In this document: positions 6,504 to 53,493 of the stretch, in pieces
How positions within the stretch are numbered: position 1 is the first letter of the stretch
How the letters are laid out: each line of letters begins with the position of its first letter
Assembly (NCBI RefSeq): GCF_028372415.1
Contig: NW_027325142.1
Coordinates: 264,843 to 328,842 of the forward strand
DNA: 64,000 bases
Reading direction: 5' to 3'
Source of the DNA: Notamacropus eugenii
Taxonomy: Eukaryota > Chordata > Mammalia > Diprotodontia > Macropodidae
Notes under the pieces: model-generated
What the model was told of the DNA's origin: nothing
Database searches by the model: none
What the model saw: the letters and a program-made list of their open reading frames with translations, nothing else
Program-made: the position numbers and the translations under genes

Positions 6504-7131
6504 TTAGGTGATCTCAAGGGAAGAGTGGGAGAGCAGCTGTGAGGTGGGATTCTCCAGACTCAATTTCCCCAGACACCTGGCAGACTTTAAGCCTGACTGA
6601 ATGCAAGTGGACAATCTACTGCTGCCTGGAAAAGACACGAAGTTGGGGAGATATTGTTTCCCTGCAATGTCCCTACTCTTGGTGGCAATTTCCTATAGTC
6701 AAAAGGTTTGTAAGCTTAATACCAGATATATTCAATTCCAGATTATGGATAGAGGAACATCTGAGGCTGTCTAAAATTAAGCTATTAGGCATAGGACTTT
6801 ATGCCAACAATGTTGAGTTAGGGTCTTTTTATTCTTAGTAATACTGTGGAGACAATTAGATCAAGAGATTGTGAAGTTAGCAACATAAATATTATCTGTG
6901 TCTCAGTTGGCTTATGTTTAAAAAAAATTCTTTTGTGGTCCATATTGTAAATGCTTTAAAAAGATGTGTCATCTGACCAAAAGTTTAAATTGCTTTATCT
7001 GCTATATAAGATGTTAAAAAGAAAGAAAGGAAGGAAGGAAGGAAGGAAGGAAGGAAGGAAGGAAGGAAGGAAGGAAGGAAGGAAGGAAGGAAGGAAGAAG
7101 GAAGAAAGAAGGAAGGAAGGAAAAAGAAAGA
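6504..7131 (+). mobile_element. 5'-truncated long-tail HAL1 insertion
   Basis: The sequence matches the last 600 bp of the full-length HAL1 at 11192-14827, from 'tgatctcaagggaag' through 'catctgaccaaaagtttaaattg' to 'gatgttaaaaagaaag'. It ends in an A-rich tail that has become a GGAA microsatellite. It is flanked by AAGAATTTGGATGCT at 6489-6503 and 7132-7146. A 5'-truncated body, A-rich 3' tail and direct repeats are the standard marks of L1-driven target-primed insertion. Confidence 0.85.
7020..7130. repeat. (GGAA)n microsatellite in the retrotransposon tail
   Basis: About 20 tandem GGAA/GAAA units grow directly out of the A-rich tail of the inserted element, and the 3' target-site copy follows at once. 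The long open frames across it (Lys/Gly/Arg or Leu/Pro/Ser repeats) are artefacts of the repeat. Confidence 0.95.
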
Positions 7132-11177: not shown

Positions 11178-11814
11178 AAGAGTTCTACCTTGGGGCGGAG
11201 CCAAGATGGCTCTTCCCTCGCAGCCCATAAAATACCTGTAAAGAAGGACTCTCAACAAATTCTAGAGGAGCAGAAGCCACAGAACAACGGAGTGGCAGAG
11301 ATTTCTAACCCAAAGTGACCTGGAAGACCGATGAGAAAGGTCTGTTGCTCCAAACACGGAGCAGAGCCCAGCTTAGCCTTGGAGGAGCAGGATCAAGCAG
11401 GCTTCAGGGACAGAATCTTCAGCTGAAGCGCTGATCCCTCAACCCACGGGCGCTAAAGGTCAGTGAGAGAGTTTACTCGACTGGGCAAGAAGGGAGCACG
11501 GTGTCCCCATTACTCAGACCTCCTCAGGTGGCAGCACTGGAGGCAGCAGTGGACTGAGGGGCCCAAGGCAGGCAGCAGCCTTCATCCATACTTGAAGGCC
11601 TCATATAAAAGCCCCTGAGGGAACTGAGCCCAGTGTGGCAATCCTACCAACCTGAGCAGCTGATCTTAATCTCACACTGATTAGTGGCCCTGCCCCCGCC
11701 TAAAGCCCCTAGGAGACTGGAGTAGCTCATCTGAATCTCAGCCCCTAGTGCTGGTTTGGTGGAACTGGAGGTGAGGTGTTTGTGGAGAGGAAACTCAGAA
11801 GTCAAGTAACTGAC

Positions 11815-12841
11815 TGGAAAAACACCCAAAAAAGGGGAAAAGATAAGACCATAGAAGGTTACTTTTTTGGTGAATAGGTGTCTCCTCCTGTCCTTGCAGA
11901 TGAAGAAGAACAAGGCATACTGTGAGAGGAAGTCAAGGGCCCTGCCTCCAAGGGATCTTAAACTGGGCTCAGGCAATAGAAGAGCTTAAAAAGAGAGTTA
12001 GCAGCTTACTAAAGGGAGAACCAAAAAAAAATGCTGAGGAAAATGACACCTTTAGAAAGAGGCTAACTCAATTGGAAAAAGAGGTCCAAAAGACCAGTGA
12101 GGAGAAGAAGGCCTTAAAAAGCAGAATTAGCCAAATGGAAAAGGAGGTTCGAAAGGTCACTGAACAAAATAATTCTTCGAAAGAGAGAATTAAGTTCAGG
12201 GAAATGAATGACTATGAGATAAACCAAGCAGTTAAAAAACAAAACCAAAAATTTGAAAAAGTAGAACATAAAGTGAAACATCTCATTGGAAAAACAAGTG
12301 ACCTGGAAAATAGATCCAGGTGAAACAATCTAAAAATTATGGCACTAATGAAAGTCATGATCAAAAAAAAGAGCCTAGACATTATCTTCCATGAAATTAT
12401 CAAGGAAAACTGCCCTGATATTCCAGAACCAGAGGGCAAAACAAATATTGAAAGAAGCCACCATCGCCTTCTGAAAGACACCCGAAGAGAGAAACTCCTA
12501 GGAATATTGTGACCAAATTTCAGAGTTCTCAGATCACAGAGAAATTACTGCAAACAGCTGGACAGAAACACTGTGAGTATTGTGGAAATACGATTAGGAT
12601 AACACAGGATCTGGCAACTTTTACATTAAGAGATGAAAGGGCTTGGAATAGGATATTCCAGAAGTCAAAGGAACTAAGATTAAAACCAAACATCACGTAC
12701 TCAGCAAAACTGAATATAATACTTCCAGTGAATAAATGGTCATTCAATGATATAGAGGACTATGAAGCATTCATATTGAGGAAAAGACCAGAATTGTATA
12801 GAAAATTTGTCTTTCAAACACAAGAATCAAGAGAAACATGA
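11815..12841 (+). pseudogene. HAL1 ORF1 remnant
   Basis: Open pieces at 11922-12323 (133 codons) and 12509-12841 (110 codons) cover the coiled coil and the C-terminal domain of an L1-type ORF1 protein. The coiled coil includes LTQLEKEVQKTSEEKKALKSRISQ and MEKEVRKVTEQNNSSKERI. The C-terminal domain includes RITQDLATFTLRDERAWNRIFQKSKELRLKPNITY. The RNA-recognition part between them (12320-12500) is broken by a stop at the end of DLENRSR and by frame shifts. The N-terminal start is degraded, so the start position is approximate. In a live copy the product would bind element RNA as a coiled-coil trimer. Confidence 0.8.
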
Positions 12842-13819
12842 AAAGGTAGGCAGGAAAGAGAAATCATAATAGAACTTTCTAAAGCTGAACTGTTTACATT
12901 CCTACATGGAAAGAAAATATTTATAACTCTTGAATCTTTTCTCAGCATTTGGGTAGATGGAGGGATTGTACATACATACATACACACACACATACATACA
13001 TACAGATATGTAGATAGAGAGTACAGATTGTGTTGAATCAGAAGGGATGATATCCACACACAAATAAAATAAAATAAAAATTAAGGGGTGAGGGAGGAAA
13101 ATACTGGGAGGAGAAAGGGAGAAATGGAATGGGACAGGCTATAACTCATAAAAGAGATAAGAATAATCTTGTTCAATGGAGGAGAAAAGGGAGAAGGGGA
13201 GAGGGGAAAAATGAAGCTACTCCCTCGACATATGGCTGAAGGAGGGAATAATATGCTCACTAAATTTAATATGAAAATCTATCTTACACCACAGGAAAGT
13301 AGGGGAGGAACTGACAAGTGGGATGAGGGGAATGATAGAAGGGAGGGCAAATGGGAGAAGGGAATAACTAGAAATAAACACTTCTGGGAAGAGACAAGGT
13401 CAAATGAGGGAATAAAAAAATAAAAAAAAATAAGGGAGGATAGAGTAGGATAGAGGGCAATATAGTTAGTGTTACACAACATGATTTTTATGGAAGTCTT
13501 TTGCAAAACAATATATATTTAGTCTGTATTGAATTGCTTGCCTTCTCAGTGGGCATGGGTAGGTAGGGAGGGAGGGAGGGAAAGAAGTTGGAATTCAAAG
13601 TATTAGTAACGAATGTTGAGAGTTTTTATTGCATATAACCAGGAAATAAGAAATACAGGCAATGGGGTATAGGAAGTTATCTTGCCTTACAAGAAAAGAG
13701 AGAATATGGGGATAAGGGAAGGGTGGGATGTGATAGAAGGGCTGGTACACTGAGGAAAGGAGTAATCAGAATGCAAGGTATTAGGAAGCAGGGGGGAGGG
13801 GAGTGATGGGGAGAAAAAT
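12842..13819 (+). repeat. HAL1 purine-rich block with internal microsatellite
   Basis: The plus strand is strongly A+G-rich and non-coding. It follows ORF1 and contains a CATA/CACA microsatellite at about 12968-13010. The same block occurs at 48120-49065 (plus), 26260-26971 (plus) and, on the minus strand, in the copies at 27060-28020, 28740-29640 and 51000-51960. It looks related to the purine-rich inter-ORF spacer of the L1 at 23526-24041. Confidence 0.7.
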
Positions 13820-14841
13820 TGGACATGTTACAAAGTGATGTAAAAGCAATTAGTATGAAAACCATTGAATGAATTAATGACTGAGAATCAAAAACATCTT
13901 TAGTTTGGGGAAAAGAATTTTAGTCTGAATTTCCTAGAGGCAGGTAACCTTGGGTAACATTTGGTATTCATGGAACAGTTAAGGTTTTAATGGTAAATTT
14001 GATTCTATGATTTCTATTTAATCAGGAACTAGGACACGCATAGAAAGGCATGTAAGTCACTTAAGACTTGCCTCAAAAGATGCTCATTAGCCAAAGTGAA
14101 ATTATAGTCACAATTGAAACCTGGTTATTGGAAGATGCTATTTTAAGACTCAATGAGACTATTAAGTGATTGTTCTTCTAACTCCAGGTATGGATAGCAA
14201 GAAAGGCGGTCTGAGCCTCCAATCCATGAGGCCAGTAAGCCTGTGAGATGCTGGTATGAACTGCAAAATAATCTCATGGGAAGGGTGGGAGAGTGGCTGT
14301 CCAGCTTGGGCTGAGGTAGGATTCTCCTGACTCAGTTTCCCCACTGACACCTGGCAATCTTTAAGCCTCACTGAACCCAAGGTGACAATCTACTCCTGCC
14401 TGGAACTGACATGAAGTTGGGGAGATGTTCTTTCCCTGCAATGTCCCTACTCTTATTGGAAATTTCCTATAGTCAAAAGATTTGTAAGGTTAATACCAGA
14501 TCTATTATATTATAGATTGTTGGTAGGGGAACATCCGAGGTTAAGTCTAAAATTAAGCTATTAGGCTTAGGGCTTTCGACCAACAACAATAAGTTAGTGT
14601 CCTTTAATTATTAGTCATAGTATGGAGACAATTAGGTCAAGGGCTTGTGAAATTAGAATACATAGTATTATTTGTGTCTCAGTTGGTTAATGTTAAAAAA
14701 AAAAATTGTGGTCTATGTTGTAAACGCTTTAAAAGAAAGCATTTTGGTCACCTGACCAAAAGTTGGAATTGTTTTATGTGAAAGGAACTGTGTTAAAAAT
14801 GAAAAATAAAATAAAATTAAGAAAAATAAGAGTGCTACCTT

Positions 14842-26971: not shown

Positions 26972-28303
26972 TTTTGTTTTTTGGGTTTTTTAAAAAAAAA
27001 TATTTTGAGGTATACTTTAATAATTTTATTTACTTATTTTTTGTTAGATTTTGACATTTATTTCCACAATATTTTGAGTTCCAATTTTTCTCCCCATCTT
27101 TCCCCTCCCACCACCCCATAACACCTTGTATTCTGATTACCCCTTCCCTCAATGTGCCCTCCCTTCTATCACACCCCACCCTTTCCTTATCCCCATCTTC
27201 TCTCTTTTCTTGTAGGACAAGATAAATTTCTATACCCCATTACCTATATTTCTTGTTTCTCAGTTATACGCAATAACAATTCTCAACATTCGTTTCTAAT
27301 ACTTTGAATTCCAGCTTCCCTGTCTCCCTCCCCATCCATCCCCACTAAGAAGGCAAGCAATTCAATACAGACTGTAGATGTGTCATTTTGCAAAAGACTT
27401 CCATAAAGTTGTGTAAGACTAACTCTATGGTCCTCTATCCTACCCTGTCCCCCGCCTCTTTTTTTTCCTATTATCTCATTTCACCTTCTCCCTTCAAAAA
27501 AGTGTTTACTTCTAGTTACTCCCTTCTCCCATTTGCCCTCCCTTCTACCATCCCCTTCACTGCACTTGTCCCTTTTCCCCCCACTTTCCTGTAATATAAG
27601 ATAGGTTTTCATACCAAATTTCGTGAGCATGTTATTCTCTCCTTTAGCCATATGTGAAGAGAGTAAGCTTCGCTTTTCCCCTCACCTCCTCCCTTTACTC
27701 CTTCATTGAAAAAGATTCCTCTTATCCCATTTATGAGTGATAGTCTGTCCCATTCCCTTGCTCCCTTTCTCCTCCCAATATTTTCGTCTCTCATCTCTTA
27801 ATTTTATTTTTTTATGGATAGATATTATCTCTTCTGATTCAACCCAACATGTACTCTTTGTCTATCTGTGTGTGAGTGTAATCCCTCCACCTCTCCAAAT
27901 ACTGAGAAAAGTCTCAAGAGCTACAAATATTATCTTTCCATGTAGATATGTAAACAGTTCACCTTTAGAAAGTTTTTTTTTTATCATTTCTCTTTCCTGT
28001 TTACCTTTTCATGCTTCTCTTGTGTTTGAAAGTCAAATTTTCTAAACACTTCTGGTCTTTTCCTCAGTATGAATGCTTCATAGTCCTCTGTATCATTGAA
28101 GGACCTTTTATTCACTGAAAGTATTATACTCAGTTTTTCTGAGTAAGTGACGCACAGTTTTAATCTCAGTTCCTTTGACTTCTGGAATATCCTTTCATCC
28201 CTTAATGTGGAAACTACCAGATCCTGTGTTATCCTGATTGTATTTCCACAATACTCGAATTATTTCTTTCTGTCTGCTTGTAATATTTTCTCCTTCACCT
28301 GGG
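26972..28303 (-). mobile_element. Short-tail HAL1 fragment, minus strand
   Basis: Read on the minus strand it holds the ORF1 C-terminal domain (28303 to about 28040), the purine-rich block (about 28020-27060), and the short HAL1 3' end ('ggaactcaaaatattgtgg' followed by A-rich sequence, about 27100-26975). The ORF1 part is broken and the copy is truncated inside ORF1 at its 5' side. It meets the plus-strand HAL1 at about 26971 tail to tail. Confidence 0.75.
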
Positions 28304-28640
28304 AACAAAACAAAATATAACACGTGTCATTTGCAAGAATCATTGATTGTGAAATGCTTTAATAGGAAGTTTAACAATTCTCAGTTGACAGCGTCTTGTG
28401 GGGCACATTTTAAGGATTTATTTGTGCAGAAAAGTTTTCTTCTTAGAACATTTCTTTGAAGAGTCAAAGGAATGCTTCCTTTTGGTTGAAGCCTGATAAT
28501 TTTGAGATCTGACTAGGTTTCCTTGATTAACAAGCTAGACTGAAGTACTTGTTCTCACATTTAAATTACACAAGAGTAGTCTTTTTTCATTGTGTTTAAA
28601 GTGCCACAACTGTTGCTTCTAATTCTCTCTCTCTCTTTTT
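28304..28640. repeat. Unnamed diverged repeat, first copy (left part)
   Basis: This aligns by eye in the same orientation with 32735-33060. Shared words include 'tgattgtgaaatgct', 'tttatttgtgcag', 'atttctttga', 'gataattttgagat' and 'ttctcacatttaaattacacaag'. Its continuation, 31096-31305, lies across the HAL1 insertion. I do not recognise the family, and it could be a segmental duplication. Confidence 0.55.
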
Positions 28641-29469
28641 CTTATAAATTTCATTTATTTATTTAGTTTTTAACATTCATTTTCACAAAATTTTGGGTTC
28701 CAAATTTTCTCCCCTTTTGTCCCCTCCGCCAACCCTGAAACACCGAGCATTCTAATTACCCTTATCACCAATCTGCTCTCTCTTCTATCATCCCTCTCTG
28801 CCCTTGTCTCCATCTTCTTTTTTGTCCTATAAGGCAAAATAACTTTCTATACCCCTTTATTGTATTTTTTATTTCCTAGTGGCAAGAACAGTACTCGACA
28901 GTTGTTCCTAAAACTTTGAGTTCCGACTTCTCGTCCTCCCTCGCTCCCCACCCCTTCCCTTTGGAAGGCAAGCAATTCAATATAGGCCAAATCTGTGTAG
29001 TTTTGCAAATGACTTCCATAATAGTCGTGTTGTAAAAGACTAACTATATTTCCCACCATCCTATCCTGTCCCCCATTACTTCTATTCCCTCTTTTGATCC
29101 TGTCCCTCCCCGTGAGTGTTGACCTCAAATTGCTCCCTCCTCCCCATTCCCTCCCTTCCATCCTTCCCCCCACCCTGCTTATCCCACTCTCCCCCACTTT
29201 CCTGTATTTTAAGATAGGTTTTCATACCAAAATGAGTGTGCATTTTATTTCTTCCTTTAGTGGAATGTGATGAAGGTAAACTTCATGTTTTTCTCTCACC
29301 TCCCCTCTTTTTCCCTCCACTAAAAAGTCTTTTGCTTGCCTCTTTTATGAGAGATAATTTGTCCCATTCTATTTCTCCCTTTCTCCTCCCAATATATTTA
29401 TCTCTCACTGCTTGATTTCATTTTTTTAAGATATGATCCCATCCTCTTCAATTCACTCTGTGCACTCTG

Positions 29470-29472
<3 letters not shown>

Positions 29473-29503
<31 letters not shown>

Positions 29504-29518
29504 TGTGTGTGTGTGTGT
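29473..29518. repeat. (TG)n microsatellite inside HAL1
   Basis: A TG run with one CA interruption. It is in the same position, just after ORF1, as the microsatellites of the other HAL1 copies. Confidence 0.95.
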
Positions 29519-29653
29519 AATCCCACCCAGTACCCAGATACTGAATAGTTTCAAGAGTTACAAATATTTTCTTTCCATGTAGGAATGTGAATAGTTCAAC
29601 TTCAGCAAGTCCCTGAAGACTTCTCTTTGCTGTTTACCTTTTCATGCTTCTTT

Positions 29654-30742
29654 TCATTCCTGTGTTTGAAAGTCACATTTTCTTCTCAGCTCTGGTCTTT
29701 TCATCAAGAATGCTTGAAAGTCCTCTATTTCATTGAAAGACCAATTTTTCCCCTGAAGCATTATACTCAGTTTTGCTGGGTAGGTGATTCTGGGTTTCAG
29801 TCCTAGTTCCTTTGACTTCTGGAATACCCTATTCCATGCCCTTCGATCCCTTAATGTAGAAGCCGCTAGATCTTGTGTAATCCTGATAGTATTTCCACAA
29901 TACTTGAAGTGTTTCTTTCTAGCTGCTTGCAATATTTTCTCCTTGACCTGGGAACTCTGGAATTTGGCCACGATGTTCCTAGGAGTTTCTCTTTTGGGAT
30001 CTCTTTCAGGCGGTGATCTGTGGATTCCTTGAATACTGATTTTGCCCTCTGGTTCTAGAATCTCAGGGCAGTTTTCCTTGATAATTTCATGAAAGATAAT
30101 GTCTAGGCCCTTTTGTTGATCATGGCTTTCAGCTAGTCCCATAATTTTTAAATTGTCTCTCCTGGATCTATTTTCCAGGTCAGTTGTTTTTCCCATGAGA
30201 TATTTCACATTATCTTCCATTTTTCTCATTCTTTTGGTTTTGTTTTGTGATTTCTTGGTTTCTCATAAAGTCATTGGCCTCCATCTGTTCCATTCTCATT
30301 TTGAAAGAACTATTTTCTTCAGTGAGCTTTTGAACCTCCTTTTCCATTTGGCTAATTCTGCTTTTGAAAGCATTCTTCTCCTCATTGGCTTTTTGAACCT
30401 CTTTTGCCAATTGAGTTAGCCTATTTTTCAAGGTGCTATTTTCTTCAGCATTTTTGGGGTCTCCTTTAGCAGGGTGCTGACCTGCTGTTCATGCTTTGAC
30501 TGTATGTCTCTCATTTCTCTTCCCAGTTTTTCCTCCACCTCTCTAACTTGATTTTCAAAATTCTTTTTGAGCTCTTCCATGGCCTGAGCCCATTGGGTGG
30601 GCTGGGATACAGAAGCCTTGACTTCTGTGTCTTTCCCTGATGGTAAGCATTGTTCTTCCTCATCAGAAAGGAAGGGAGGAAACACCTGTTCACCAAGAAA
30701 GTAACCTTCTATAGTCTTATTTCTTTTCCCTTTTCTGGGCAT
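29654..30742 (-). pseudogene. HAL1 ORF1 with two frame shifts
   Basis: The minus-strand start MPRKGKRNKTIEGYFLGEQ is at 30742. The frame runs to about 30430, where it shifts in the run after LKETPK. A second frame (30431-30210) carries LAKEVQKANEEKNAFKSRISQ and MEKEVQKLTEENSSFKMRMEQ, two 21-residue coiled-coil units, and shifts near 30225. A third (30229-29654, 191 codons) holds the RRM-like domain and the whole C-terminal domain to FQTQE. With only two visible breaks this is one of the better preserved HAL1 ORF1 copies. It is a dead RNA-binding protein gene of a non-autonomous element. Confidence 0.85.
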
Positions 30743-31095
30743 TTTCCCAGCCAGTGACTTGACTTCTGAATATTCTCTTAACATCCACTTAGCCTCCAGA
30801 TCCTCCCAGCCAGTGCTTGGGGTCTGAGATTCAAATGCTGCTTCCCAGCCTCAAGGCTTTGGGCGGGGGCAGGGCTGCTATTCAGTGTGAGATTAAGTTC
30901 AGGTGCTCAGGTGGGGGCAGGGCCGCCTCACGGGGCTCAGTTCCCTCAGGGGGTTTATGCAGAGACCTTCAACAATGGATCTGGGCTCCTGCCTGCTTGG
31001 GGAGCCCGGGTCTGCTGCCGCCTCTTTGCTTCCTCCCGAGGGGGCCTGAGTTATGGGGACACCCCATTCCCCTCTTGACCACCGAAAATTGCTGA

Positions 31096-34184: not shown

Positions 34185-36495
34185 ATGTGGATTTTCCATC
34201 ATGAGTCTTTTGGAATTGTCTTAGATCTTTGAATTGCTAAGAAAAACTAAGTCTATCAGTCATCACACAGTGTGGCTGTAACTGTGTATAACGTTCTGGT
34301 TCTCATCACTTGACTCAGCATCAGTTCATATAAGCCTTTCCAAGATTTTCTAAAATCTGTCCCTCATTTCTTATAACACGATAGTATTCCAGTACATTCA
34401 TATACCAGAACTTTTTCAGCCATTCCCCAGGTGACTGGCATTCCCTCATTTTCTAACTCATTCACCAGGAAAGGGGCTGCTACAAATATTTTTGTACACG
34501 TGGGTCCTTTTCTCATTTTTATGCTCTCTTTGGGAGATGGATCTACAAGGGGTATTGCTGAGTCAAAGGATATGCGTGGTTTTATAGTTCTTGGGGCGTA
34601 ATTCCAAATTGATCCTCAAAATGGTGGAATCAGTTCACAACTCCACGAGCAATGCATCAGTGTTCCAGTTTTCCCGCATCTTCTCCAACCTTTATCATTT
34701 TCCTGTTTTATCATCTGAATCAGTCTGATAAGAATGATGTGGTACTTCAGAATTGTTTTGATTTGAATTTTGCTAATCAAGTGATTGAGACCATTTTTTC
34801 ATCTAACTATAGAGAACTTGAATTTCTTCTTCTGAAAACTGTCAATTCATATTCTTTGAGAATTTATCAACTGAGGAATAACTTATATTCTTACAAATTT
34901 GACTCAGTTCTCTCTATATTTTAGAAATGAGGCCTTTATCAGAGACACTGTCTATAAAAACTGTTTCCCAGCTTTCTGCTAATCTTTCTGCATTGCATTT
35001 GTTTTTGCAAAAACTACTTAATTTAATGTACTTGCAATCATCCATTTTGGATTTCCTAGTATTCTCTATCTTGTTTGGTCATAAATTCTTCTGTTCTCCA
35101 TAGACTTGAAATATCTGAGAAATTATTCCTTATTCTCATAATTTGCTTATAGTATCAACCTTTATGCCTAAATCATGTACCCATTTCGACTCTATCTTGC
35201 CATGTAGTATAAGATCTACATAATTTCTGCTATATTCCTGTCCAGTTTTCTCAGCAGTTTTTGTTAAATACTGAGGTATGTCTAAAGACGGAGTCTTCGA
35301 GCTAATCCAACAGATTACTACAAGCATTGACTATTGTGTCTAGCATACCTCTCCTATTCCGCTGATTCACCACTCTATTTTTCAGTCAGTATCAAATAGT
35401 TTGGTGAGTACTGCTTTATAATGTAGTGTTAGGGCTAGTATGGCTAGGCCACCTTTCTTTCCACTTCTTTTCATTAATTTCCTTGATGTCTGGAACTTCT
35501 CTTCTCCTAGATGACTTCCGTTATTATTTTTTCTAGCTCTTTAGGATAATATTTTGGTAGTCTGATTGTATGTCCCTAAGTAAGTAAATTAATTTAGGTA
35601 GAATTGTCATTTTTATTATATTTAATCAGCCTACCATTAGCAAGTTGTATTTTCCCAATTACTTAAATCTTATTGGGGTGAAAAATGTTTTGTAATTGTC
35701 TTCATGTAGTTCCTGGGTTTGTTTTGGCAGGTGGACTCCCAAATATATTATAGTCTTTACAATAACTTTAAAAGGAATTTCTCTTTCTAATTCTTGATGT
35801 TGGACTTCATTAGTAATATGTAGAAATGTCAATTATTTATGTAAGCTTACTTTCTATCCTGCAACTGGGATTTTTTTTTATTATTTCAAGTTATGGTTTA
35901 CTTGATTCTCTAGGATTCTCTAAGTATACTATCATATTATCTCCAAAGAATGATAGCTTTGTTTCTTCTTTGCTATTCTAATTCCTTCTATTATTTTTCT
36001 TCTTATTGCTAAAGCTAACGTTCTTAGTACTATATTCAATAACAATGGTGAAGATGGCCATTCTTATTTCATCCCCTATCCAATTGGAAATGCTTCTAAA
36101 TTATCCCCAGTACATATAATGTTTGCTGATGGTTTTAGAAGGATGCTATTTATCATTTTGAGGAAGGCTCCATTTATTCCTCTGCTTGCTAGTGTTTTTA
36201 ATGGAATTGGTGTTGTATTTTGTCAGAAACTTCTTCAGCATTTATTGAAATCATCATATGATTTTTGTTAATTTTCTTGGTAATATGATCTGTTATGAAG
36301 ATAGTTTTCCTAATATTGAACCAACTCTGCATTCATACTATAAATCCTACCTGGTCATACTGTAATAACTTTGCAAAAAGTTGCTATAGTCTCATGGCTA
36401 TTTTATTTAAATTTTTTGCATTTGTATTCATTAGGGATATTGCTCTATAATTTTCTTTCTCTCTTATGACTCTTACTGGTTTAGGTGTCAGTACT
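34185..36495 (-). pseudogene. L1 ORF2 remnant, RT to C-terminus
   Basis: This matches 19600-21930 of the young L1 in the same orientation, covering the 3' end, the C-terminal region and the RT core. Only short open stretches remain, such as the segment around 35136-35327 encoding IESKWVHDLGIKVDTISKL. It is cut at 36495 by the LTR complex. Confidence 0.75.
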
Positions 36496-38771
36496 AATAA
36501 CTATGTAAACTAATTTCACTAGCCTCATTAACCTGATGGTCTCCATACTATGACTAGGAATTAAAATACCTTAATTTATTGTTGTCTAAATTTATTATTT
36601 GGGGATTAAGGAATTAACCTGATGGTCTCCACACTATGACTAGGAATTAAAAGACCCCAATTTATTATTGCCTGAAGTTCTAATCCTATTAGCTCAATTT
36701 TAGACTTAACCTCAGATGTTCCCCTACCAAACAATCTATAATTTAATAAATCTGATATGACTACAGGAGATTGCTACTAAGAGTAGGGACATTGCAGGGA
36801 ATCAATATCTCACTAACTTCATATCAATTCCAGGTAGGAGCAGATTGTCAACTGGCATTCAGCCAGGTTAAAAGTCCGCCAGTTGTCAGTGGGGAATTTG
36901 AGTCAGGAGAATCCTACCTCAACCCAGGCTGAACAGTCACTTTCCCAACCTTCCTATGAGATCACCATTTTGAAGTTCATACCAGCATCTCACAGATCAT
37001 GGATTGGAGGCTCAGACCACCTTTCTTGTTACTTTTACCTGGAGTTAGACTCAAAAAAACCAGTCAGTTAATGGTCTAATAAAATCTTAAAATGGCAAGC
37101 TCCAAAACTGGGTTTCAGATATAACTATAATTTCACATTGGCTAAGGAACATCTTTTGAAGCAAATCTTAAGGCTTGTATATCTTTCTATTTACATGTTC
37201 TAGTTCCTTATAGATTTACATCTGCTTCCCATGCTTATAACCCTGCTCAGTCTAAAAGAATGAGCTACATATATAACAATTTCAAACACTAATTTCAATT
37301 TATGTTCATGAAATGAATTCAGATCAAAACAGAAACATTTAACTTTTCCATAAATGCCAAATTTTACCAGAGATTACCTGCCTCTAAGAAACTTAGACTG
37401 AAATTCTTTTCACTAAAGTAAAGATGTCTCTATTTTAGCTTCCGTAATTAATTCAGTCAATTGTTTTAATAATTGCCTTTACTTCATTTTTTAACATATG
37501 AAGACCTTATTACAAGTTGGGACCTTTATCCATTACCCCCAAAGAGTTTTAGTCCCATTTGTCTAAAAAGACCCTAGAGAACCTCACTTTGTGCCATGTA
37601 TACTGACTCTCCAGAGGCCCACAGAAACATATCAGTAATCACTATTCCCTATTAATCCAGTTCTACTAGCCACTCCTATCAAAACCATGCTGGGAACCTC
37701 TAAACTTCCTGGGCTCTTTCCTCAGTCTCTTTGTAGATGATGAAAACAATGAGGAAACTGAGCCAGAAGAATTCCATCCCAGTCTGAGGACACAATTATC
37801 CCTTGAGGCTTGTACATTAGATAATAGATTTCACTAATCAAAAATTTTACCAAGACACATCTTAAACTTTAAATTTGTCCTAAAAGCCAAACACTAGAGA
37901 TTATCACCTACACAAATTCCTAGTTTAGGAATTCCATACACAGCTTACACTTTACATAGAGATTACAACTTTAACAAAGTGAGGGGCCATACCTCTTGGG
38001 AGATCATTTAAGACTCTTCAGATCTTAGGGGCCCCTAGGTGGGACTGAAGCCACTCCCTTCCTTCACAATAAGAAATAGTTAACATCTGTCCTCAGAATC
38101 TCCAGTTCAAATTAGATGTTAAGTCTTTCTGTAATGACTGGACTTCTAAAGGAAAGGGGGATGAAGCCAGGAGGCTTTCCACAGAGCTACCCAGAACCAT
38201 AAAATTTTTGGTCTCCTTTCTTATACCAAATTAACTTACAAATATAAATTTTATAGGTAAACATTTCAAAAATCATACAAAAGATTTCATAAAGCATTTC
38301 TTAATCTTCCTCTTTTTAAGAACACTTTACAATTTATCATAAGACATTCATGAACCTAATTAGCAAAAATTACAAGACCCAAAGCCCAAGATCTTTTCAC
38401 ACTTAGCCATAAGCTTCCTTTTACATACTTTTGTAAATACTTTATTCCTAGCAAAAACCAATTTTAGTTAAAACTTACTTAGCAACAGAAATTAACTTTT
38501 TAATGTACTTAATACATCCTTAGATGGAACAGACTTAAAATCACAAACCAATTCATCATTAATTTAACAATGCAATTTCTACATGCCAAATAATATATCT
38601 TTCTGCTTGATCCTGATAGGATGAGTATTCTCAGATGCTGCCTATTATTCCTGCAGGACAGATTTTAACTTGAAACCATATCAAACCTAGATTTATAAAA
38701 ACATTTTAACCCTCCTCTTTCTTTTACTCTATTCCCTTATAGAGCTTTTTCAGGTAAGGGAGAGAATTGCC
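36496..38771 (-). mobile_element. Inverted internal segment of the LTR element
   Basis: Read on the minus strand it aligns with the plus strand of about 41360-44500 inside the neighbouring LTR element, including the HAL1-shared block (37480-36500). The match is diverged with many length differences, so it is a second, separate fossil copy of the same family, not a recent inversion. A short direct duplication near 36530-36650 ('ttaacctgatggtctcc') lies at its left end. No coding frame of retroviral size is present. Confidence 0.65.
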
Positions 38772-39162
38772 TGTCACTCACATCTCTGAGGAGGGGAGAC
38801 TTTCCCCTTTTTCTTTAGTTTGGGGGTGGTGGTGGTGGTGGCAGGGAATGGAGCCACCAAGCCCTCTGCAAAGCTAATGTGCAGGCTTAAGGAGCTGTAT
38901 GGGGAAGGGCCTATGAGAGAGGGCAACATGGAGTCACATGGCCAGGGAACACTGTAGCGGGGGATCCAAAATTCAGAAAACAGTATAAGAAGCCCATCTT
39001 TCTGCATGTGTTGTAGTCTTCCTGTAACCTTACTGGAAGAGGCTACCCATACATTCAAGGACATTGTATGTAAAGATTGATTTCACAACAGGTTATGTTC
39101 TTTATTTAAGGTGAGTATGTTTCTCATCGTTGCGGGCTTGTTAGACAGGCTCACTTCTAACA
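38772..39162 (+). repeat. 5' LTR of the LTR element
   Basis: From about 38885 it aligns with the 3' LTR ('aaggagctgtatg', 'catctttctgcatgtgttgtagtcttcctgtaacc', 'gaggctacccatacattca') to the common end TCTAACA. The first ~110 bases are poorly matched, so the exact start is uncertain. A GGT microsatellite sits at 38823-38841. Confidence 0.7.
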
Positions 39163-39167
39163 ATTCT

Positions 39168-39185
39168 TGGGGGCTTGTTGCGGGA
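39168..39185 (+). promoter_or_regulatory. Primer-binding-site-like sequence (tRNA-Pro type)
   Basis: TGGGGGCTTGTTGCGGGA starts six bases after the LTR end. It closely resembles the proline-tRNA primer site used by gammaretroviruses and many class I endogenous retroviruses. Confidence 0.65.
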
Positions 39186-39199
39186 CCTTTAGCATCAGA

Positions 39200-43000: not shown

Positions 43001-45176
43001 TATGTTTTCAGAACTTATGGTTTATCTAAGCATGTCCTTGTTTTTCTTTTTTATAGTAAATTTCTGTAATCAAAGTCAGTGGTCAGTCAATGGGTAGTTA
43101 TTCTATAATCCAGTTGGGTAAATTAGTATTCCTGCATAGCCATGTGAAAGATTAGATCCCTGGAAGAGAACATTATTTCTGAATGATATGAAAATAGTTA
43201 AACAAAATGAAAAGTAGTTGTGAAACTACTTTTGAAGGTACAAACACAATATTGAATCATTATCCCATAGATTAAGGTTAGGATACATCTGTGATACTGG
43301 ATCAAAATGTGTGTTGAAGATCTGGGCTATTCAGCCTAGGATTATATTCCTTTTTATTTTAAACAACTTAGAAAATGGAGTATTTGACCTAGTCATCTGC
43401 CTGCTATTAGATCTATGTTTGTATGAAACAAAGTCCTTAAATATCAAAATGATGTTAAAGTAACTGAGTATTGGCACAACTGATTGAAGGACCTACGTGC
43501 TATTCAATTAATTACTGAAACTAGATCAGAAACATCTTTAGTTTGGGGGAAATAATTTCAGTCTAAGTTTCATAGAGGCAGATAACCGCTGGCAATATTT
43601 TTGCATTAATGGAAAAGTTAAATGTTTGTTGTGATATGAATTCATTTCATCAGCATAAGTTGAAGTTAGTGTTTGAATTTATCACATGTGTAGCTCATTC
43701 TTTTAGATTGAACAGATTTAGAAAGTTATAGAGAAGCATGGAAAGCAAATATAAATCCATTAGAGCAATAACTTAAAGTTTTAATGGTAAATTTGATCTT
43801 ATGATTGTTATTTAATCAGGAATTAGAAAAAAGGATAGAAAGGCATGAAAGCCACTTAAGGCTTGCTTCAAAAGATGTTCCTTAGCCCATGTGAAATTAT
43901 AGTCATATCTGAAACTGATTATTGGAGCTTGCTATTTTAAGATTTTACGGGACTATTAACGGACTGTTCTTCTGAGTCTAACTCCAGGTATGAATAGCAA
44001 GAAATGTAATCTAAGCCGTTGATCCATGATGCCATTGAGCCTGTAAGATGCTGGTATGAACTGCAAAAAGGTGATCTTATGGGAAGATTGAGAAAGCGGC
44101 TGAGGTAGGATTCTCCTGACTCAATTTCCCCACTGACACCAGGAAGACTTTAAGCCTGTCTGAATGCCAGTTGACAATCTATTCCTGCCTGGAATTAACA
44201 TGAAATTAGGAAGATATTGTTTCCCTGCAATGTCCCTACTCTTAGTGGTAATTTCCTATAATCCAAAGTTTTGTTAGCATAATACCAGGTTTATTAAATA
44301 ATAGATTTTTGGAGGGGAACATCTGAGGTTAAGTCTAAAATTAAGCTATTAGGCTTAGGACTTTGGACCCACAACGATAAGTTAAAGTCTTTCAATTCTT
44401 AATAGTGTGGAGACAATCCGGTCAAGGGCTTGTGAAGTTAGCATACAATGTTGTCATTTTGTCTCAGCTGGTTAATGTTAAGCGATAAATGGTTTGTGGT
44501 CCATATTGTAAATGCTTTAAAAGAAAAATCACATGGCCATAAGTTGGGATTGTTTTATGAGGTGATAAGTATTGTGTTAAAATTATTATTTATTTATTGT
44601 ATTTATGTAAGTAATGGAACCTGATATCGACTCCTTAGTGAAATCTCATCTTCCTGATGGGGGAAATGAATAGTGAACTAAAGTAAAATGTAAAAAGGGG
44701 TTTCTTATGTGAATTTCTTGCACATGCCAACTGGCCAAAGTTCCAGTTTTGATTCTGTAAGAGTGATAAGTGTATAAAGTTTAGGAATGATCATCTAAAA
44801 TGGTATTTAAGTCAGTTTTGTAGGATAGTGGACATCTGGATTTCTACAAGAAGATAAAGGGTAGAAAATGCTAAGATACTATGCTGAAGATGACTTGAAT
44901 GAGCATCCAAACCAGAAAACTGCATCAGATGATGTTCCTTCCCAGATTGTGGTATGAGATGAAACCTCTGATTAAATAGGTCATTGATCTGCCTTTGTAT
45001 TTGGAATCTCTGTATCTGTACTTGTAATAAGGGAACTACACCCTTGTAATTTGTCAATGATTCAGTCTCCCCATATTCATATAAAGGAGGATAGATGAAG
45101 GGAAGAATTCATAGGGGAAAGAATGTGAGGATGTATTTATTGATTGGATTTAGGTGGAGAAACACAAATTTTAATA
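40060..45176 (+). other. Non-coding internal region of the LTR element
   Basis: 5.1 kb of AT-rich sequence with no retroviral protein frame. From about 41360 to 44500 it has a diverged partner in the inverted segment on the left. The portion 43430-44585 is homologous to the 3' tail of the long HAL1 copies. The 600 bases before the polypurine tract have no partner elsewhere in the window. Confidence 0.65.
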
Positions 45177-45195
45177 AAGAAAAAGAGGGGGGATT
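45177..45195 (+). promoter_or_regulatory. Polypurine tract
   Basis: AAGAAAAAGAGGGGGGAT lies three bases before the TGTGGGAAG start of the 3' LTR, the place where retroviral plus-strand priming occurs. Confidence 0.8.
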
Positions 45196-45197
45196 TT

Positions 45198-46500: not shown

Positions 46501-49500
46501 GGGGGTGGAGCCAAGTTGGCAGAATAGAAAGACCCATATACTCTAGCGCTTCCCCCAAAGCCCACAAAACACCTATAAAAATGACTCTAAACAAAGTCTA
46601 GAGTAGCAGAAGCCATAGAACAACAGAGAAAAAGAAGTTTCCAGCCAAAGGTAATCTGGAAGGCTGACAGGAAAGGTCTAGATAGCATGGGATGGTGACC
46701 TGAGCCCAGCCCTGGATACGCAGCACGGGGAAGAATAGGACAGGAACAGATCTCCAGCAGGAACGGTCCCAGATACTTCAAGCCACAAATGACAAAGAAA
46801 GCTCCAAAGGTTAGTGTGGGACAGCTTTCCCAGCTGGGTGAGGGGGAAGGGGTTTCTCCACCAGTAGCCCCAGGCAGCAGCAGAGGCAGAGGCAGCAGAC
46901 TTCAGGCAGCTAAGGTGGTTTGGAAGCAAACTGGGTTCATTGTCCAGGCAGCTCAGCCCAAAGCCTCTGGCAGCAGGGAGCAGTTGATCTAAACCCCAGA
47001 ACTGAGTGACAACCCCACCCCACACCAAAGCCTAAGGGAAATGAGAAGCTCAGTCGAATTTCTGGACAAAGGATTCAGAAGTCAAGTAACTGGCTAGGAA
47101 AATGCCTTAAAAAGGTAAAAAAATATAAGAGCATAGAAGTTTAGTTTCTTGGTGAAGAGGTGTCTCCTCCCATTCTTCCTGATGAGGAAGAACAAGGCTT
47201 TCTGTCACAGGAAGTTAAGACCCCTGCCTCCAGGGCCTCCAGATTGAATTTGAACTGAGCTAAGGCAATGGAAGACATTGAAAAGAGAGTTAGCACCTTA
47301 TTAAAGGAGAACCAAAAAAATGCTGAGGAAAATAACACCTTTAAAAAGAGGCTAACTCAACTGGAAAAAGAGGTCCAAAAAGTCAATGAGAAGAAGGAGG
47401 CTTTAAAAAGCAGAAATGGCCAAGTGGAAAAGAAGGTTCAAAAGCTCATTGAACAAAATAGTTCTTTGAAAGAGAGAATTGAGTTCAGGGAAAGGAATGA
47501 CTACGAGGCAAACCAAATAGTTAAAAAACAAAACCAAAAGTTTGAAAAAATAGAAGGTAATGTGAAACATCCCATTGGAAAAACAACTGACCTGGAAAAT
47601 AGATCCAGGAGAGACAATTTAAAAATTATGGGACCACCTGAAATCCATGGTTTAAAAAAGAGCTTAGACATTATCTTCCATGAAATTATCAAGGAAAACT
47701 GCCTTGACATTATAGAACCAGAGGGTAAAATAAATATTGAAAGAATCCACTGATCACCTCCTGAAAGAAACCCAAAAAGAGAAACTTCTAGGAATATTGT
47801 GGCCAAATTTCAGAATTCCCAGGTCAAGGAGCAAATATTGCAGGCAACTAGAAAGAAACAATTTGAGTACTTTGATACAATTAGGATAACAGAGAATCTG
47901 GCAGCTTCTACATTAAGGGATCGAAGGACTTGGAATAGGATATTCCAGAAGTCAAAGGAACTTGGATTAAAATCAAGAATCACCTACCCAGCAAAACTGA
48001 GTATAAGACTTCCAGGCAATAAATGGTCATTCAGTGATATAGAGGACTTCCAAGCATTCATGATGAAAAGAGCAGAACTGAAGAGAAAAATTTGACTTTC
48101 AAACATAAGAATCAAGAGAAGAGTGAAAAGGTGAACAGGAAAGAAAAATCATAAAGGACTTTCTAAAGTTGAACTGTTTACTTTTCTACATGGAAAGATA
48201 ACATTTGGATAGGTAGAGGGATATCACACACACACACACACACACGCACACACACACACACACCACATAGACAGAGAGTACAGGTTGAGTGGAACCAGAT
48301 GATATCCATATAAAATATAAATATATCCATATAAAAAATAAAATAAAATTAAGGGTGAGAGAGGAAAATATTGGGAAGAGAAAGGGAGAAATGGAATGGG
48401 GCAGGCTATCACTCATAAAAGAGATAAGAAAAATCTTGTTCAATGGAGGAGAAAAGGGAGGAAATGAGAAGGGTAAAAGTGAAGCTTACTCTTCACATAT
48501 GGCTTAAGGAGGGAATAACATGCTCACTAAATTTGGTATGAAAATCCATCTTATGCTACAGGAAAGTAGGGGAGGAGATGACAAGTGGGGTGAGGGGAAT
48601 GATAGAAGGGAGGGTAAATGGGAGAATGGAGTAACTAGAAATAAACACTTTTGGGAAAGGACAAGGTCAAATGAGGGAAAAAAAATAAGGGGGGAAAAGT
48701 AGGATAGAGGGCAATGTAGTTAGCATTACACAACATGATGATTATTATGGAGGTCTTTTGCAAAACGACACATATTTGGTCCGTATTGAATTGTTTGCCT
48801 TCTCAGTGGGGATGGGTAGGGAGGGAAGGAGGGAGAGAAGTTGGAATTAAAAGTATTAGAAACGAATGTTGAGAATTATTATTGCATATAACCGGGAAAT
48901 AAGAAACACAGGTAATGGGGTATAGAAATGTATCTTGCCCTACAAGGGAGAAGATGGGGATAAGGGAAGGGTGGGGTGTGAGAGAAGGGAGAGCTCATTG
49001 AGGGAAGGGGTAATCAGAATGCAAGGTATTAGGGGGTGGGGGGGGAAGGGAGAGATGGAGAGAAAAATTGGACATCTTACAAAGTGATGTAAAAGCAATT
49101 AGTATTCAAACAATTGACTGAATTAATTACTGACAGTAAATCAGAGATATCTTTAGTTTGGGGAAAAGAATTTTAGTCTAAGTTTCCTAGAGGCAGGTAA
49201 CCTTGAGGAAAATTTGGCATTGGTGGAACAGTTAAAGTTTTAATGGTAAATCTGATTGTGATTGTTATTTAACCAGGAACTAGAACAGGTATAGAAAGAC
49301 ATGGGAGGCCACATAAGACTTGCCTCAAAAGATGTTCCTTAGCCAATGTGAAATTACAGTCATATCTGAAACCTGGTTACTGGAACTGGCTATTATAAGA
49401 CACTATAGGGCTATTAACTGACTGTTCTTCTGAGTCTAACTCCAGGTATGGGTAGCAAGAAAGGCGATTTGAGCCTCCAGTCCATGAAGCCTGTGAGATG

Positions 49501-50046
49501 CTGGTATGACAAAGTGATCTCAAGGGAAGGGTGGGAGAGAGGCTGTTCAGCCTGGGCTGAGGTAGGATTCTCCTGAATCAATTTCCCACTGACACCTAGC
49601 AGTCTTTCAGCTTCACTGAATCTATTCCTGCCTGGAACTGACATGAAGTTAAGGAGATATTGTTTCCCTGCAATGTCCCTACTCTTAGTGGCAATGCCCT
49701 ATAGTCAAATGATTTGTAAGCTTAATACTAGACCTATTAAATTATAGATTGTTGGTAGGGGAACATCCGAGGTTAAGTCTAAAATTAAGATATTAGGCTT
49801 AGGATTTTAGACCAACAACAATAAGGTTGAGTCCTTTAATTCTTAGTAATAGTGTAGAGACAATTAGGTCAAGGGTTTATGAAGTTAGCATATATAGCTA
49901 TTACTTGTGTCTCAGTTGGTTAATGTTCCAAAAAAAAAAAAAAATTCATTTGTGAGCTATATTGTAAACGCTTTAAAAGAAATATCACCTGACCAAAAGT
50001 TGGAATTGTGTTATGTGATATGAACTGTGTTCACAATGAAAAAAAA
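46501..50046 (+). mobile_element. Full-length long-tail HAL1
   Basis: It starts GGGGGTGGAGCCAAGTTGGC and ends in an A run at 50038-50046. It contains a 5' UTR, ORF1 remnant, purine-rich block with CA repeat (48223-48263) and the 1-kb tail (49066-50046), collinear with the HAL1 at 11192-14827. It interrupts the old minus-strand L1 in the spacer upstream of ORF2. The flanking 'aactgtatcttta' and 'aactatcatcttctttta' may be decayed target-site copies. Confidence 0.82.
47104..48120 (+). pseudogene. HAL1 ORF1 remnant
   Basis: An open piece at 47268-47753 (161 codons) carries the coiled coil (LTQLEKEVQKVNEKKEALKSRNGQ, VEKKVQKLIEQNSSLKERIEF) and the RRM-like domain to KINIERIH. A stop follows in what should be HRSPPER. 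A second piece, 47799-48095 (98 codons), holds the C-terminal domain (RITENLAASTLRDRRTWNRIFQKSKELGLKSRITY). The N-terminal region 47104-47267 is broken. It has two 21-residue coiled-coil units, like the other HAL1 copies. It would encode an L1-type RNA-binding protein if alive. Confidence 0.82.
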
Positions 50047-50900: not shown

Positions 50901-51919
50901 AAAAATATTTATTTATTTAACTTTTAACATTCATTTTTCACAAAATTTTGGGTTCCAAATTTTCTCCCCTTTTGTTCCCTCCCACCACCCTGAAACACCG
51001 AGCATTCTAATTGCCCCTATTACCAATCTGCTCTCTCTTCTATCATCCCTCTCTGCCCTTGTCTCCATCTTGTCTTCTGTCCTGTAGGCCCAAATAACTT
51101 TCTATACCCCTTTACCTCTGTTTCTTATTTCCTAGTAGCAAGAACAGTACTCGATAGTTGTTCCTAAAACTTTGAGTTCCAATTTCTCTTCCTCCCTCCC
51201 TCCCCCCCCCCTTCCTTTTGGAAGGCAAGCAATTCAATATAGGCCAAATCTGTGTAGTTTTGCAAATGACTTCCATAATAGTCGTGTTGTAAAAGACTAA
51301 CTATATTTCCCACCATCCTATCCTGTCCCCCATTACTTCTATTCCCTCTTTTGATCCTGTCCCTCCCCGTGAGTGTTGACCTCAAATTGCTCCCTCCTCC
51401 CCATTTCCTCCCTTCCATCCTTCCCCCGACCCTGCTTATCCCCTTATCACTCACTTTCCTATATTTTAAGATAGGTTTTCATACCAAAATGAGTGTGCAT
51501 TTTATTTCTTCCTTTAGTGGAATGTGATGAAGGTAAACTTCATGTTTTTCTCTCACCTCCCCTCTTTTTCCCTCCACTAAAAAGTCTTTTGCTTGCCTCT
51601 TTTATGAGAGATAATTTGCCCCATTCCATTTCTCCCTTTCTCCTCCCAATATATTTCTCTCTCACTGCTTGATTTCATTTTTTCAAAATATGATCCCATC
51701 CTCTTCAATTCACTCTGTGCACTCTGTCTCTATGTGTGTGTGCATGTGCGTATGCATGTGTGTGTGTGTGTGTGTGTTCCCACCCAGTACCCAGATACTG
51801 AAAAGTTTCAAGAGGTACAAATATGGTCTTTCCATGTAGGAATGTAAACAGTTCAACTTTAGTAAGTCCCTTATGACTGCTCTTTGCTGTTCACCTTTTC
51901 ATGCTTCTCTTCATTCTTG

Positions 51920-52999
51920 TGTTTGAAAGTCAAATTTTCTTTTCAGCTCTGGTCTTTTCATCAAGAATGCTTAAAAGTCCTCTATTTCATTGAAAGACCA
52001 AATTTTCCCCTGAAGTATTATACTCAGTTTTGCTGGGTAGGTGATTCTTGGTTTTAGTCCTAGTTCCTTTGACTTCTGGAATATCCTATTCCATGCCCTT
52101 TGTTCCCTTAATGTAGAAGCTGCTAGATCTTGTGTTCTCCTGATTGTATTTCCACAGTACTTGAATTGTTTCTGTCTAGCTTCTTGCAATATTTTCTCCT
52201 TGACCTGGGAACTCTGGAATTTGGCCACAATGTTCCTAGGAGTTTCTCTTTTGGGATCTCTTTCAGGCGGTGATCTGTGGATTCCTTGAATGCTGATTTT
52301 GCCCTCTGGTTCTAGAATCTCAGGGAAGTTTTCCTTGATAATGTCATGAAAGATGATGTCTAGGCTCTTTTTTTGATCATGGCTTTCAGCTAGTCCCATA
52401 ATTTTTAAATTCTCTCTCCTGGATCTATTTTCCAGGTCAGTTGTTTTTCCCATAAGATATTTCACATTATCTTCCATTTTTTCACTCTTTTGGTTTTGTT
52501 TTGTGATTTCTTGGTTTCTCATAAAGTCATTGGCCTCCATCTGTTCCATTCTAATTTTGAAAGAACTATTTTCTTCAGTGAGCTTTTGAACCTCCTTTTC
52601 CATTTGGCTAATTCTGCTTCTGAAAGCATTCTTCTCCTCATTGGCTTTTTGAACCTCTTTTGCCAGTTGAGTTAGCCTGTTTTTCAAGGTGTTATTTTCT
52701 TCAGCATTTTTTTGGGTCTCCTTTAGCAGGGTGTTTACTTGTTTTTCATGCTCTTCTTACATCTCTCTCATTACTCTTCCCAGTTTTTCCTCCACCTTTC
52801 TAACTTGATTTTCAAAATCCTTTTTGAACTCTTCCATGGCCTGAGCCCACTGGGTGGGCTGGGATACAGAAGCCTTGACTTCTGTGTCTTTGCCTGATGG
52901 TAAGCATTGTTCTTCCTCATCAAAAAGGAAGGGAGGAAACACCTGTTCACCAAGAAAGTAACCTTCTATAGTCTTATTTCTTTTCCCTTTTCTGGGCAT
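51920..52999 (-). pseudogene. HAL1 ORF1 with premature stops
   Basis: From the ATG at 52999 (MPRKGKRNKTIEGYFLGEQ) one frame runs to the stop at 51971, interrupted by a single TAA at 52759-52757. The downstream 238-codon part contains two 21-residue coiled-coil units (LAKEVQKANEEKNAFRSRISQ, MEKEVQKLTEENSSFKIRMEQ), the RRM-like domain (LKIMGLAESHDQKKSLDIIF) and the C-terminal domain (RRTQDLAASTLREQRAWNRIF). It ends early in NEIEDF, where sisters read EDFQAFLMKRPEL, so a glutamine codon has become a stop. There are no frame shifts between the two. It is the best preserved HAL1 ORF1 in the window. Confidence 0.88.
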
Positions 53000-53474: not shown

Positions 53475-53483
53475 GCCATCTTG
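53475..53483 (-). promoter_or_regulatory. YY1-type site at the HAL1 start
   Basis: CAAGATGGC on the minus strand, 11-19 bases into the element, at the same offset as in the young L1 and in the HAL1 at 11192 (CAAGATGGC at 11202-11210). Confidence 0.65.
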
Positions 53484-53493
53484 GCTCCGCCCC

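What the first reader, a model, noticed from the sequence alone, without database searches (positions are those of the whole stretch)
13820..14827. The 1-kb tail of long HAL1 elements is homologous to an internal block of the LTR element
Seen: the last ~1 kb of the HAL1 copies at 11192-14827 and 46501-50046, and the fragment at 6504-7131, aligns with 43430-44585 (plus) and 37480-36500 (minus) inside the retrovirus-like complex. Shared words include 'gaattaattac', 'aaagatgttccttagcc', 'tgagtctaactccaggta', 'ggtaggattctcctgact', 'tccctgcaatgtccctactctta' and 'gaacatctgaggttaagtctaaaatt'. In the LTR element similarity between its own two copies extends beyond this block on its 5' side, and the element continues about 600 bp past it to its polypurine tract; in HAL1 the block ends at the A-rich tail. 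The short HAL1 form lacks it. Inference: a HAL1 gained a 3' end from the LTR element's RNA, with the HAL1 tail starting at an A-rich internal site, and the chimera then spread. The reverse capture cannot be excluded.
Basis: partly seen in the sequence, partly recalled or inferred. Interest (0 to 1): 0.82.

Follow-up and report, generated by a model that had tools for sequence, protein, structure and literature searches.

The report
Jumping element with stolen retroviral tail
In this genome a LINE-1-derived jumping element (HAL1) ends in a 1-kb piece that also sits inside a retrovirus-like element; the piece was likely captured from the retrovirus in a single copying accident, and the hybrid junction is now found at more than 2,000 places.

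Summary
Both long HAL1 copies end in ~1 kb also found inside two LTR-element copies; 6504-7131 is a 5'-truncated long HAL1 with a 15-bp target-site duplication. In the window's own 3.4-Gb genome the sharp HAL1|block junction (13823|13824) recurs in 20 of 20 copies fetched by block similarity and 38 of 38 fetched by HAL1 similarity; a 35-base junction pattern hits 2,249 places, reversed control 0. Both uninterrupted parents exist: native L1/HAL1 3' ends (1,205 hits) and LTR elements running through the site (327 hits). LTR copies also run past the block's 3' end (4 of 4 read). Duplications flank the whole HAL1+block unit (10 of 22 significant; 0 of 22 at the junction). A second LTR family shares the junction region, and HAL1 copies lack ~150 nt that donor-family LTR copies have: the LTR element is the likely donor. 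Best mechanism (inferred): L1 reverse transcriptase began on LTR-element RNA at an A-rich site and switched to HAL1 RNA. Nearest analogue: SVA. New variant of a known kind.

The parts
11178..11191 (+). 5' target-site duplication AAGAGTTCTACCTT of HAL1a
   Evidence: 13 of 14 match to 14828-14841; p=0.002 against 462 mispaired flanks
11192..13823 (+). HAL1a: 5' end, ORF1 region and 3' UTR up to the junction
   Evidence: weak Pfam ORF1 matches in 12452-12841, below the gathering scores
13824..14800 (+). Captured block (LTR-element internal sequence) forming the 3' end of HAL1a
14801..14827 (+). A-rich tail of HAL1a, containing AATAAA
   Evidence: 7 of the 10 relatives whose tail shows whole read GTGTTAAAAATGAAAAATAAAA
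14828..14841 (+). 3' target-site duplication AAGAGTGCTACCTT of HAL1a
46501..49072 (+). HAL1b up to the same junction
   Evidence: Tnp_22_dsRBD above its cut-off in 47754-48095
49073..50046 (+). Captured block and tail of HAL1b
   Evidence: no significant target-site duplication (p=0.90)
6504..7131 (+). 5'-truncated long HAL1 (block only) inserted in an L1; flanked by AAGAATTTGGATGCT
   Evidence: 15-bp exact duplication; groups with HAL1 copies in the trees
27080..28306 (-). Short HAL1 with native 3' end (parental type)
28699..31081 (-). Short HAL1 with native 3' end
50954..53493 (-). Short HAL1 with native 3' end
38870..39162 (+). LTR element, plus copy: 3' part of the 5' LTR
   Evidence: 83% to 45276-45581, ends CTAACA; K2P 0.123
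39167..39186 (+). Primer-binding-site-like stretch TTGGGGGCTTGTTGCGGGAC
   Evidence: directly after the 5' LTR here and in L101, L102; likeness to a tRNA-Pro site is recalled
43431..44577 (+). The block at home inside the plus LTR element
44578..45196 (+). LTR-element sequence 3' of the block, ending in the purine tract
   Evidence: shared by L059-L062
45197..45581 (+). 3' LTR, TGTGGGA...CTAACA
36495..37497 (-). The block in the minus LTR-element copy, ending at 36495 where an L1 stretch begins
37498..38721 (-). LTR-element sequence 5' of the block in the minus copy; no HAL1 match in the self-BLAST

Best explanation
The long HAL1 elements are chimeras: at 13823|13824 the HAL1 3' UTR stops about 35 nt before its native end and continues as ~1 kb of internal sequence of a retrovirus-like LTR element (ERV), likely joined once when L1 reverse transcriptase started on an ERV RNA at an A-rich internal site and then switched template to a HAL1 RNA. 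Shown: one sharp junction in every copy examined, both uninterrupted parents in the same genome, ERV sequence continuing on both sides of the block, and target-site duplications around the whole HAL1+block unit in about half of the copies tested. Inferred: the direction ERV to HAL1 (strongly supported), the template switch itself, and spread by L1 proteins in trans with the ERV end serving as the new 3' UTR and tail.
For: Same junction in 20 of 20 copies chosen by block and 38 of 38 chosen by HAL1 3' UTR; 2,249 genome hits to the junction 35-mer at up to 2 mismatches, control 0. HAL1-side parent: 1,205 hits to the native L1/HAL1 end, control 0; three copies in the window. ERV-side parent: 327 hits to the uninterrupted ERV sequence at up to 3 mismatches, control 0; the minus copy, L041, L049 and L054 align across the site. 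3' side: L059-L062 run through, 4 of 4, to an LTR in 3 of 4. A second ERV family crosses the junction site in 23 of 24 loci. A 126-nt probe of the stretch missing from HAL1 finds ten loci, all LTR-element (five distinct copies, the window's duplicate and refetched pieces), and none of the HAL1 loci that reach that part (L001-L028, L063-L074). The tree splits 25 HAL1 from 8 ERV rows once, 100/99. Duplications around the unit in 10 of 22, at the junction in 0 of 22. No HAL1 A-tail at the junction, and no GT donor or AG acceptor within a few bases of it in the one HAL1 and one ERV parent checked, against plain 3' transduction or splicing.
Against: The joining event cannot be replayed; a genomic deletion fusing a HAL1 to an ERV, followed by read-through transcription, leaves nearly the same structure. 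HAL1 and block distances between copies hardly correlate (-0.23 to 0.24), and the block is less diverged (median p 0.070-0.076) than HAL1 segments (0.101-0.109) in copies chosen by block similarity; chosen by HAL1 the block is 0.079, so equal age is only roughly supported. The query behind the 38 of 38 came from a long copy, so its nearest relatives were expected to be long. The second ERV family holds only the first ~190 nt of the block in the stretch read and lacks the ~150-nt piece too. The root of the block tree is not fixed (midpoint). Only 10 of 22 copies have a significant duplication, HAL1b none, and the flank windows were set after a first look.
Confidence: 0.72

Rival explanations
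1. Same chimera, other origin: a HAL1 inserted in or beside an ERV copy, a deletion removed its last ~35 nt, tail and some ERV sequence, and read-through transcription to an A-rich site in the ERV made the progenitor RNA.
For: Would also leave a sharp junction without A-tail; two of 38 copies end in an A-tail early inside the block (L078, L081), so 3' ends in this sequence can shift.
Against: Needs insertion, deletion and read-through in series; by eye no AATAAA stands just upstream of the block's end in the five ERV copies aligned.
Confidence: 0.22
2. Reverse capture: the LTR element took the last 1 kb of a long HAL1.
For: Block identity alone (about 80%) does not say the direction; the second ERV family lacks most of the block in the stretch read.
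Against: The native HAL1/L1 end has no such kb; the second ERV family carries the junction region in ERV context; donor-family ERV copies hold ~150 nt that no HAL1 copy reaching that part has; ERV block diversity (0.12-0.18, 8 copies) is deeper than HAL1's (about 0.08, 12 copies).
Confidence: 0.03
3. The block is an independent repeat that inserted separately into HAL1 and the LTR element.
For: The block occurs in several contexts, and one copy (6504-7131) stands without HAL1.
Against: No duplication at the junction in 22; ERV copies align across both block ends without a break; the lone copy groups with HAL1 in the trees.
Confidence: 0.03

Closest known systems
HAL1 (half-L1)
   Same: L1-type 5' end, ORF1 remnant, no ORF2 match, A-tail and target-site duplications; known as an ORF1-only L1 derivative arisen several times in mammals (PMC5753468, passages seen; Bao and Jurka 2010 itself not held)
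   Different: Its 3' UTR end is replaced by ~1 kb of LTR-element internal sequence; no listing or passage seen mentions such a form
SVA (SINE-R-VNTR-Alu) of hominids
   Same: L1-mobilised composite whose 3' part (SINE-R) comes from an endogenous retrovirus (env 3' end and 3' LTR of HERV-K10; PMC12593883, passages seen)
   Different: SVA has no L1 coding part (recalled) and its ERV piece includes the LTR; here the 5' part is HAL1 and the piece is internal, ending ~620 nt before the LTR
Template-switch chimeras of L1 (U6/L1; SVA-CKS1B pseudogene)
   Same: One insertion joining two RNAs; the SVA-CKS1B case was argued from the same absence of tail and splice site (PMC12593883, PMC4476161, passages seen)
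   Different: Those described in the passages are mainly separate insertions; this product became a family with over 2,000 junction copies
MINE of Magnaporthe
   Same: A new repeat type proposed to arise by LINE template switching (mentioned in PMC4476161, passage seen)
   Different: Fungal; other LINE, partner not an ERV (recalled)

Membership tests
HAL1 | L1-related ORF1 | tested here: met
   Tnp_22_dsRBD above cut-off in 47754-48095 (HAL1b); below cut-off in HAL1a; nucleotide match to the ORF1 part of the window's L1
HAL1 | No ORF2 (endonuclease/reverse transcriptase) | tested here: met
   The L1 ORF2 region (21123-23579) has no match in 11192-14827 or 46501-50046 in the self-BLAST; 13 of the 16 relatives that reach the 5' end span 3.4-3.65 kb's match positions
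HAL1 | A-rich tail and target-site duplications (L1-type insertion) | tested here: met
   10 of 22 copies significant; fragment and L005 exact 15 and 14 bp
HAL1 | L1/HAL1 native 3' end | tested here: not met
   Replaced after AAAAATTGGA in the long copies read; this is why it is called a variant
SVA-type composite | ERV-derived 3' part on an L1-mobilised element | tested here: met
   mobilisation by L1 is inferred from tails and duplications
SVA-type composite | Hexamer, Alu-like and VNTR parts | tested here: not met
   The 5' part is HAL1 from its L1-type start
Endogenous retrovirus / LTR element (donor) | Paired LTRs TG...CA with primer site and purine tract | tested here: met
   of 4 copies whose 5' side was read, 2 have full LTR pairs (L101/L059, L102/L060), the window plus copy and L103/L062 partial ones
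Endogenous retrovirus / LTR element (donor) | gag/pol/env coding | tested here: inconclusive
   Only two frames (81 and 84 aa) were scanned, no Pfam match; class not assigned
Repbase/Dfam listing | Whether this HAL1 consensus is already listed | not testable with these tools
   No repeat library on hand

The most novel reading that the evidence does not exclude
The retroviral tail was not a passive hitch-hiker: by swapping its 3' UTR for ERV sequence HAL1 escaped 3'-UTR-directed silencing or gained RNA export or stability, and this let the hybrid spread to thousands of copies, a LINE-lineage 3'-end replacement taken straight from a retrovirus.
Probability: 0.2. Interest if true: 0.72.

Novelty: new variant of a known kind. 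Interest (0 to 1): 0.52.

Why it matters
It documents a non-autonomous L1 derivative that exchanged its 3' end for the inside of an endogenous retrovirus and then multiplied, with both parents and the recombinant in one genome. That makes it a natural experiment on what the L1 machinery needs at an RNA's 3' end, and a second, independent route to an SVA-like element. The shared junction also gives a clean marker for dating the event across related species.

Tried and rejected
Considered and rejected: splicing (no GT/AG near the break); plain 3' transduction (no HAL1 A-tail between the parts); independent insertion of the block; reverse capture. RNA folding of the block gave no unusual stability (z -0.54, 6 of 20 shuffles as good), so it lends nothing to an RNA-element reading. 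Rfam found nothing in the window at gathering scores. The distance comparison HAL1 versus block was weaker than hoped: no clear correlation, and one search's first alignment gave inflated HAL1 distances (0.165), replaced by pairwise alignment. Places found by DNA similarity are capped at 40 scored candidates; only the pattern counts are whole, and they include the window and its inverted duplicate. The first target-site look was repeated with mispaired controls.

Papers: seven searches were answered. Passages, not whole texts, were seen of PMC5753468, PMC5322556, PMC12593883, PMC4476161 and PMC6500023; of the rest only listings. Bao and Jurka 2010 and Gentles 2007 were not held.

Full report
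What was checked. A self-comparison of the window confirms the observation: the two long HAL1 copies share ~1 kb of tail with each other, with the fragment at 6504-7131 and with two copies of an LTR element (plus 43431-44577; minus 37497-36495), at about 74-82% identity. Three short HAL1 copies on the minus strand match the long ones only to 13823 and then show a native end before their A-tail; the copy ending at 27080 reads AAAAATTGGA|ACTCAAAATATTGTGG.... The long form reads AAAAATTGGA|CATGTTACAAAGTGATG. The native end goes on about 35 nt further before its tail, so the long form lacks that stretch.

The genome. The genome search placed the window at G000:C60:264843-328842 of an unnamed 3.45-Gb assembly. 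The block query gave 4,720 first-look places, of which 40 were scored, all matches. Twenty of these 40 were fetched with flanks: 20 of 20 have HAL1 up to the same junction, give or take a few bases, and 16 of 20 begin within 22 bases of HAL1a's 5' end. A query with HAL1 3' UTR alone (13023-13823), which holds none of the tail, scored 40 of 10,317 places: two are the window copy and its inverted duplicate, and all other 38 were read across the junction: 38 of 38 carry the block, none the native end. That query is itself from a long copy, so this shows that its lineage is uniformly chimeric, not that short forms are rare. Pattern counts over the whole genome: junction 2,249 (up to 2 mismatches), native end 1,205 (up to 2), LTR-element sequence running through the site 327 (up to 3); reversed controls 0 in all three. 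The native-end count includes any L1 with that end.

The LTR element. The plus copy has LTRs (3' LTR 45197-45581, TGTGGGA...CTAACA), a primer-site-like stretch after the 5' LTR and a purine tract before the 3' LTR. A query with its sequence 5' of the block (42300-43500) scored 40 candidates (53 matches), 30 given as loci. Apart from the window copy and its duplicate (L029, L030), these 28 fall in two kinds. Four (L041, L049, L052, L054; five more such hits gave no locus) match the element over 41479-42783, and all four carry the block downstream. The other 24 belong to a related family that matches from about 42870 up to the junction site at 43430 and, in 23 of 24, on into the block's first ~190 nt (to about 43621); beyond that it differs, so it lacks most of the block in the stretch read. 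In an alignment the minus copy, L041, L049 and L054 run through the junction site with conserved LTR-element sequence on its far side, for instance ...AACTTGGAATAAGGTCTTTACATGTTACAAAATGATGTAAAAG... in L049; L052 lacks that part. On the 3' side all four (refetched as L059-L062) run from the block into the downstream LTR-element sequence, 3 of 4 on into an LTR, while the HAL1 copies aligned stop at or near GTGTTAAAAAT and enter an A-rich tail. Two full LTR pairs differ by K2P 0.069 and 0.091, an 88-nt partial pair by 0.072, the window's plus copy by 0.123.

One unit, one event. Flanks of 22 long copies (20 fetched plus two in the window) were tested for target-site duplications against 462 mispaired flanks, with windows set from the first look: 10 of 22 reach p<=0.01 with the duplication outside HAL1's 5' end and the block's tail; with the junction taken as left end, 0 of 22 do. 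HAL1b is among those without one. The fragment and L005 have exact duplications of 15 and 14 bp. The HAL1 copies that reach it lack about 150 nt of the LTR element (43622-43772): a 126-nt probe finds ten loci, all of the donor LTR family, and neither a HAL1 locus nor a locus of the second LTR family, among loci L001-L100. A tree of 33 blocks (10 of the 20 fetched copies, 12 of the 38, three from the window, eight LTR-element copies) separates 25 HAL1 rows, fragment included, from 8 LTR-element rows on one branch, support 100/99 (an earlier tree of 29 rows gave 99/97). LTR-element blocks differ from each other by 0.12-0.18, HAL1 blocks by about 0.08 in 12 copies. L104, which pairs weakly with the minus copy (82/28), is nearest to HAL1 (0.119); the root is midpoint only.

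Direction and mechanism. Both parents pass through the junction, and the LTR element through both ends of the block, without a break; the recombinant is the long HAL1. The sister LTR family shows the junction region in LTR-element context. So the LTR element is the donor (inference, strong). For the joining step, the break carries no HAL1 tail and no splice signals nearby, which speaks against plain transduction and splicing. Target-primed reverse transcription beginning at the A-rich TTAAAAAT of the LTR-element RNA, followed by a jump to HAL1 RNA, explains 5'-complete HAL1 plus internal LTR-element sequence with one duplication. A published SVA-CKS1B case was argued from the absence of a tail and splice site (PMC12593883, passages seen). 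The ~150-nt gap lies between short similar stretches (GTTAAATGTT / CTTAAAGTTTT) and may be a second jump; that is a guess. A deletion fusing a resident HAL1 to an LTR element remains possible.

Results that do not fit neatly. HAL1 and block distances hardly correlate between copies, and the block is somewhat less diverged than HAL1 segments (0.079 in 12 copies chosen by HAL1). Fixed windows, selection by block similarity and a star-like expansion could cause this; shared age is only roughly supported. The block folds no better than shuffles.

Novelty. HAL1s, ERV-derived 3' parts on L1-mobilised elements (SVA) and template-switch chimeras are known kinds. A HAL1 whose 3' end is LTR-element internal sequence, expanded to thousands, is not mentioned in the listings and passages seen; repeat libraries could not be searched, so the consensus may already be listed there.

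Noticed in passing
window 1-64000 (G000:C60): The window's scaffold (460 kb) holds near-identical inverted copies of window sequence: HAL1a at 446921-447928 and the LTR element at 418246-419446, both minus, sums giving one axis near 363,294. Either a large palindrome or an assembly fold-back.
   Followed up: partly
42870-43621: The plus LTR element looks like a mosaic of two LTR families: this stretch is ~82% like a second family (24 loci) that diverges near 43621, the same point where HAL1's ~150-nt gap begins.
   Followed up: partly
L078, L081: Two of 38 long HAL1 copies end in an A-rich tail only ~45-60 nt into the block, so alternative 3' ends occur inside it.
   Followed up: no
G000:C25: 9 of the 40 best block matches lie on C25 (103 of 3,445 Mb), against 1 of 40 for the HAL1 3' UTR query; could be a chromosome with less-diverged copies.
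   Followed up: no
28653-31077 and 50907-53335: Two short HAL1 copies on one strand are 94% identical over 2.4 kb, closer than any other HAL1 pair in the self-BLAST.
   Followed up: no
G000: Many of the 100 LTR-element hits listed (of 327) share the identical variant GAGATCTTTACATG..., pointing to a uniform, perhaps younger subfamily; only one (L105) was read.
   Followed up: partly
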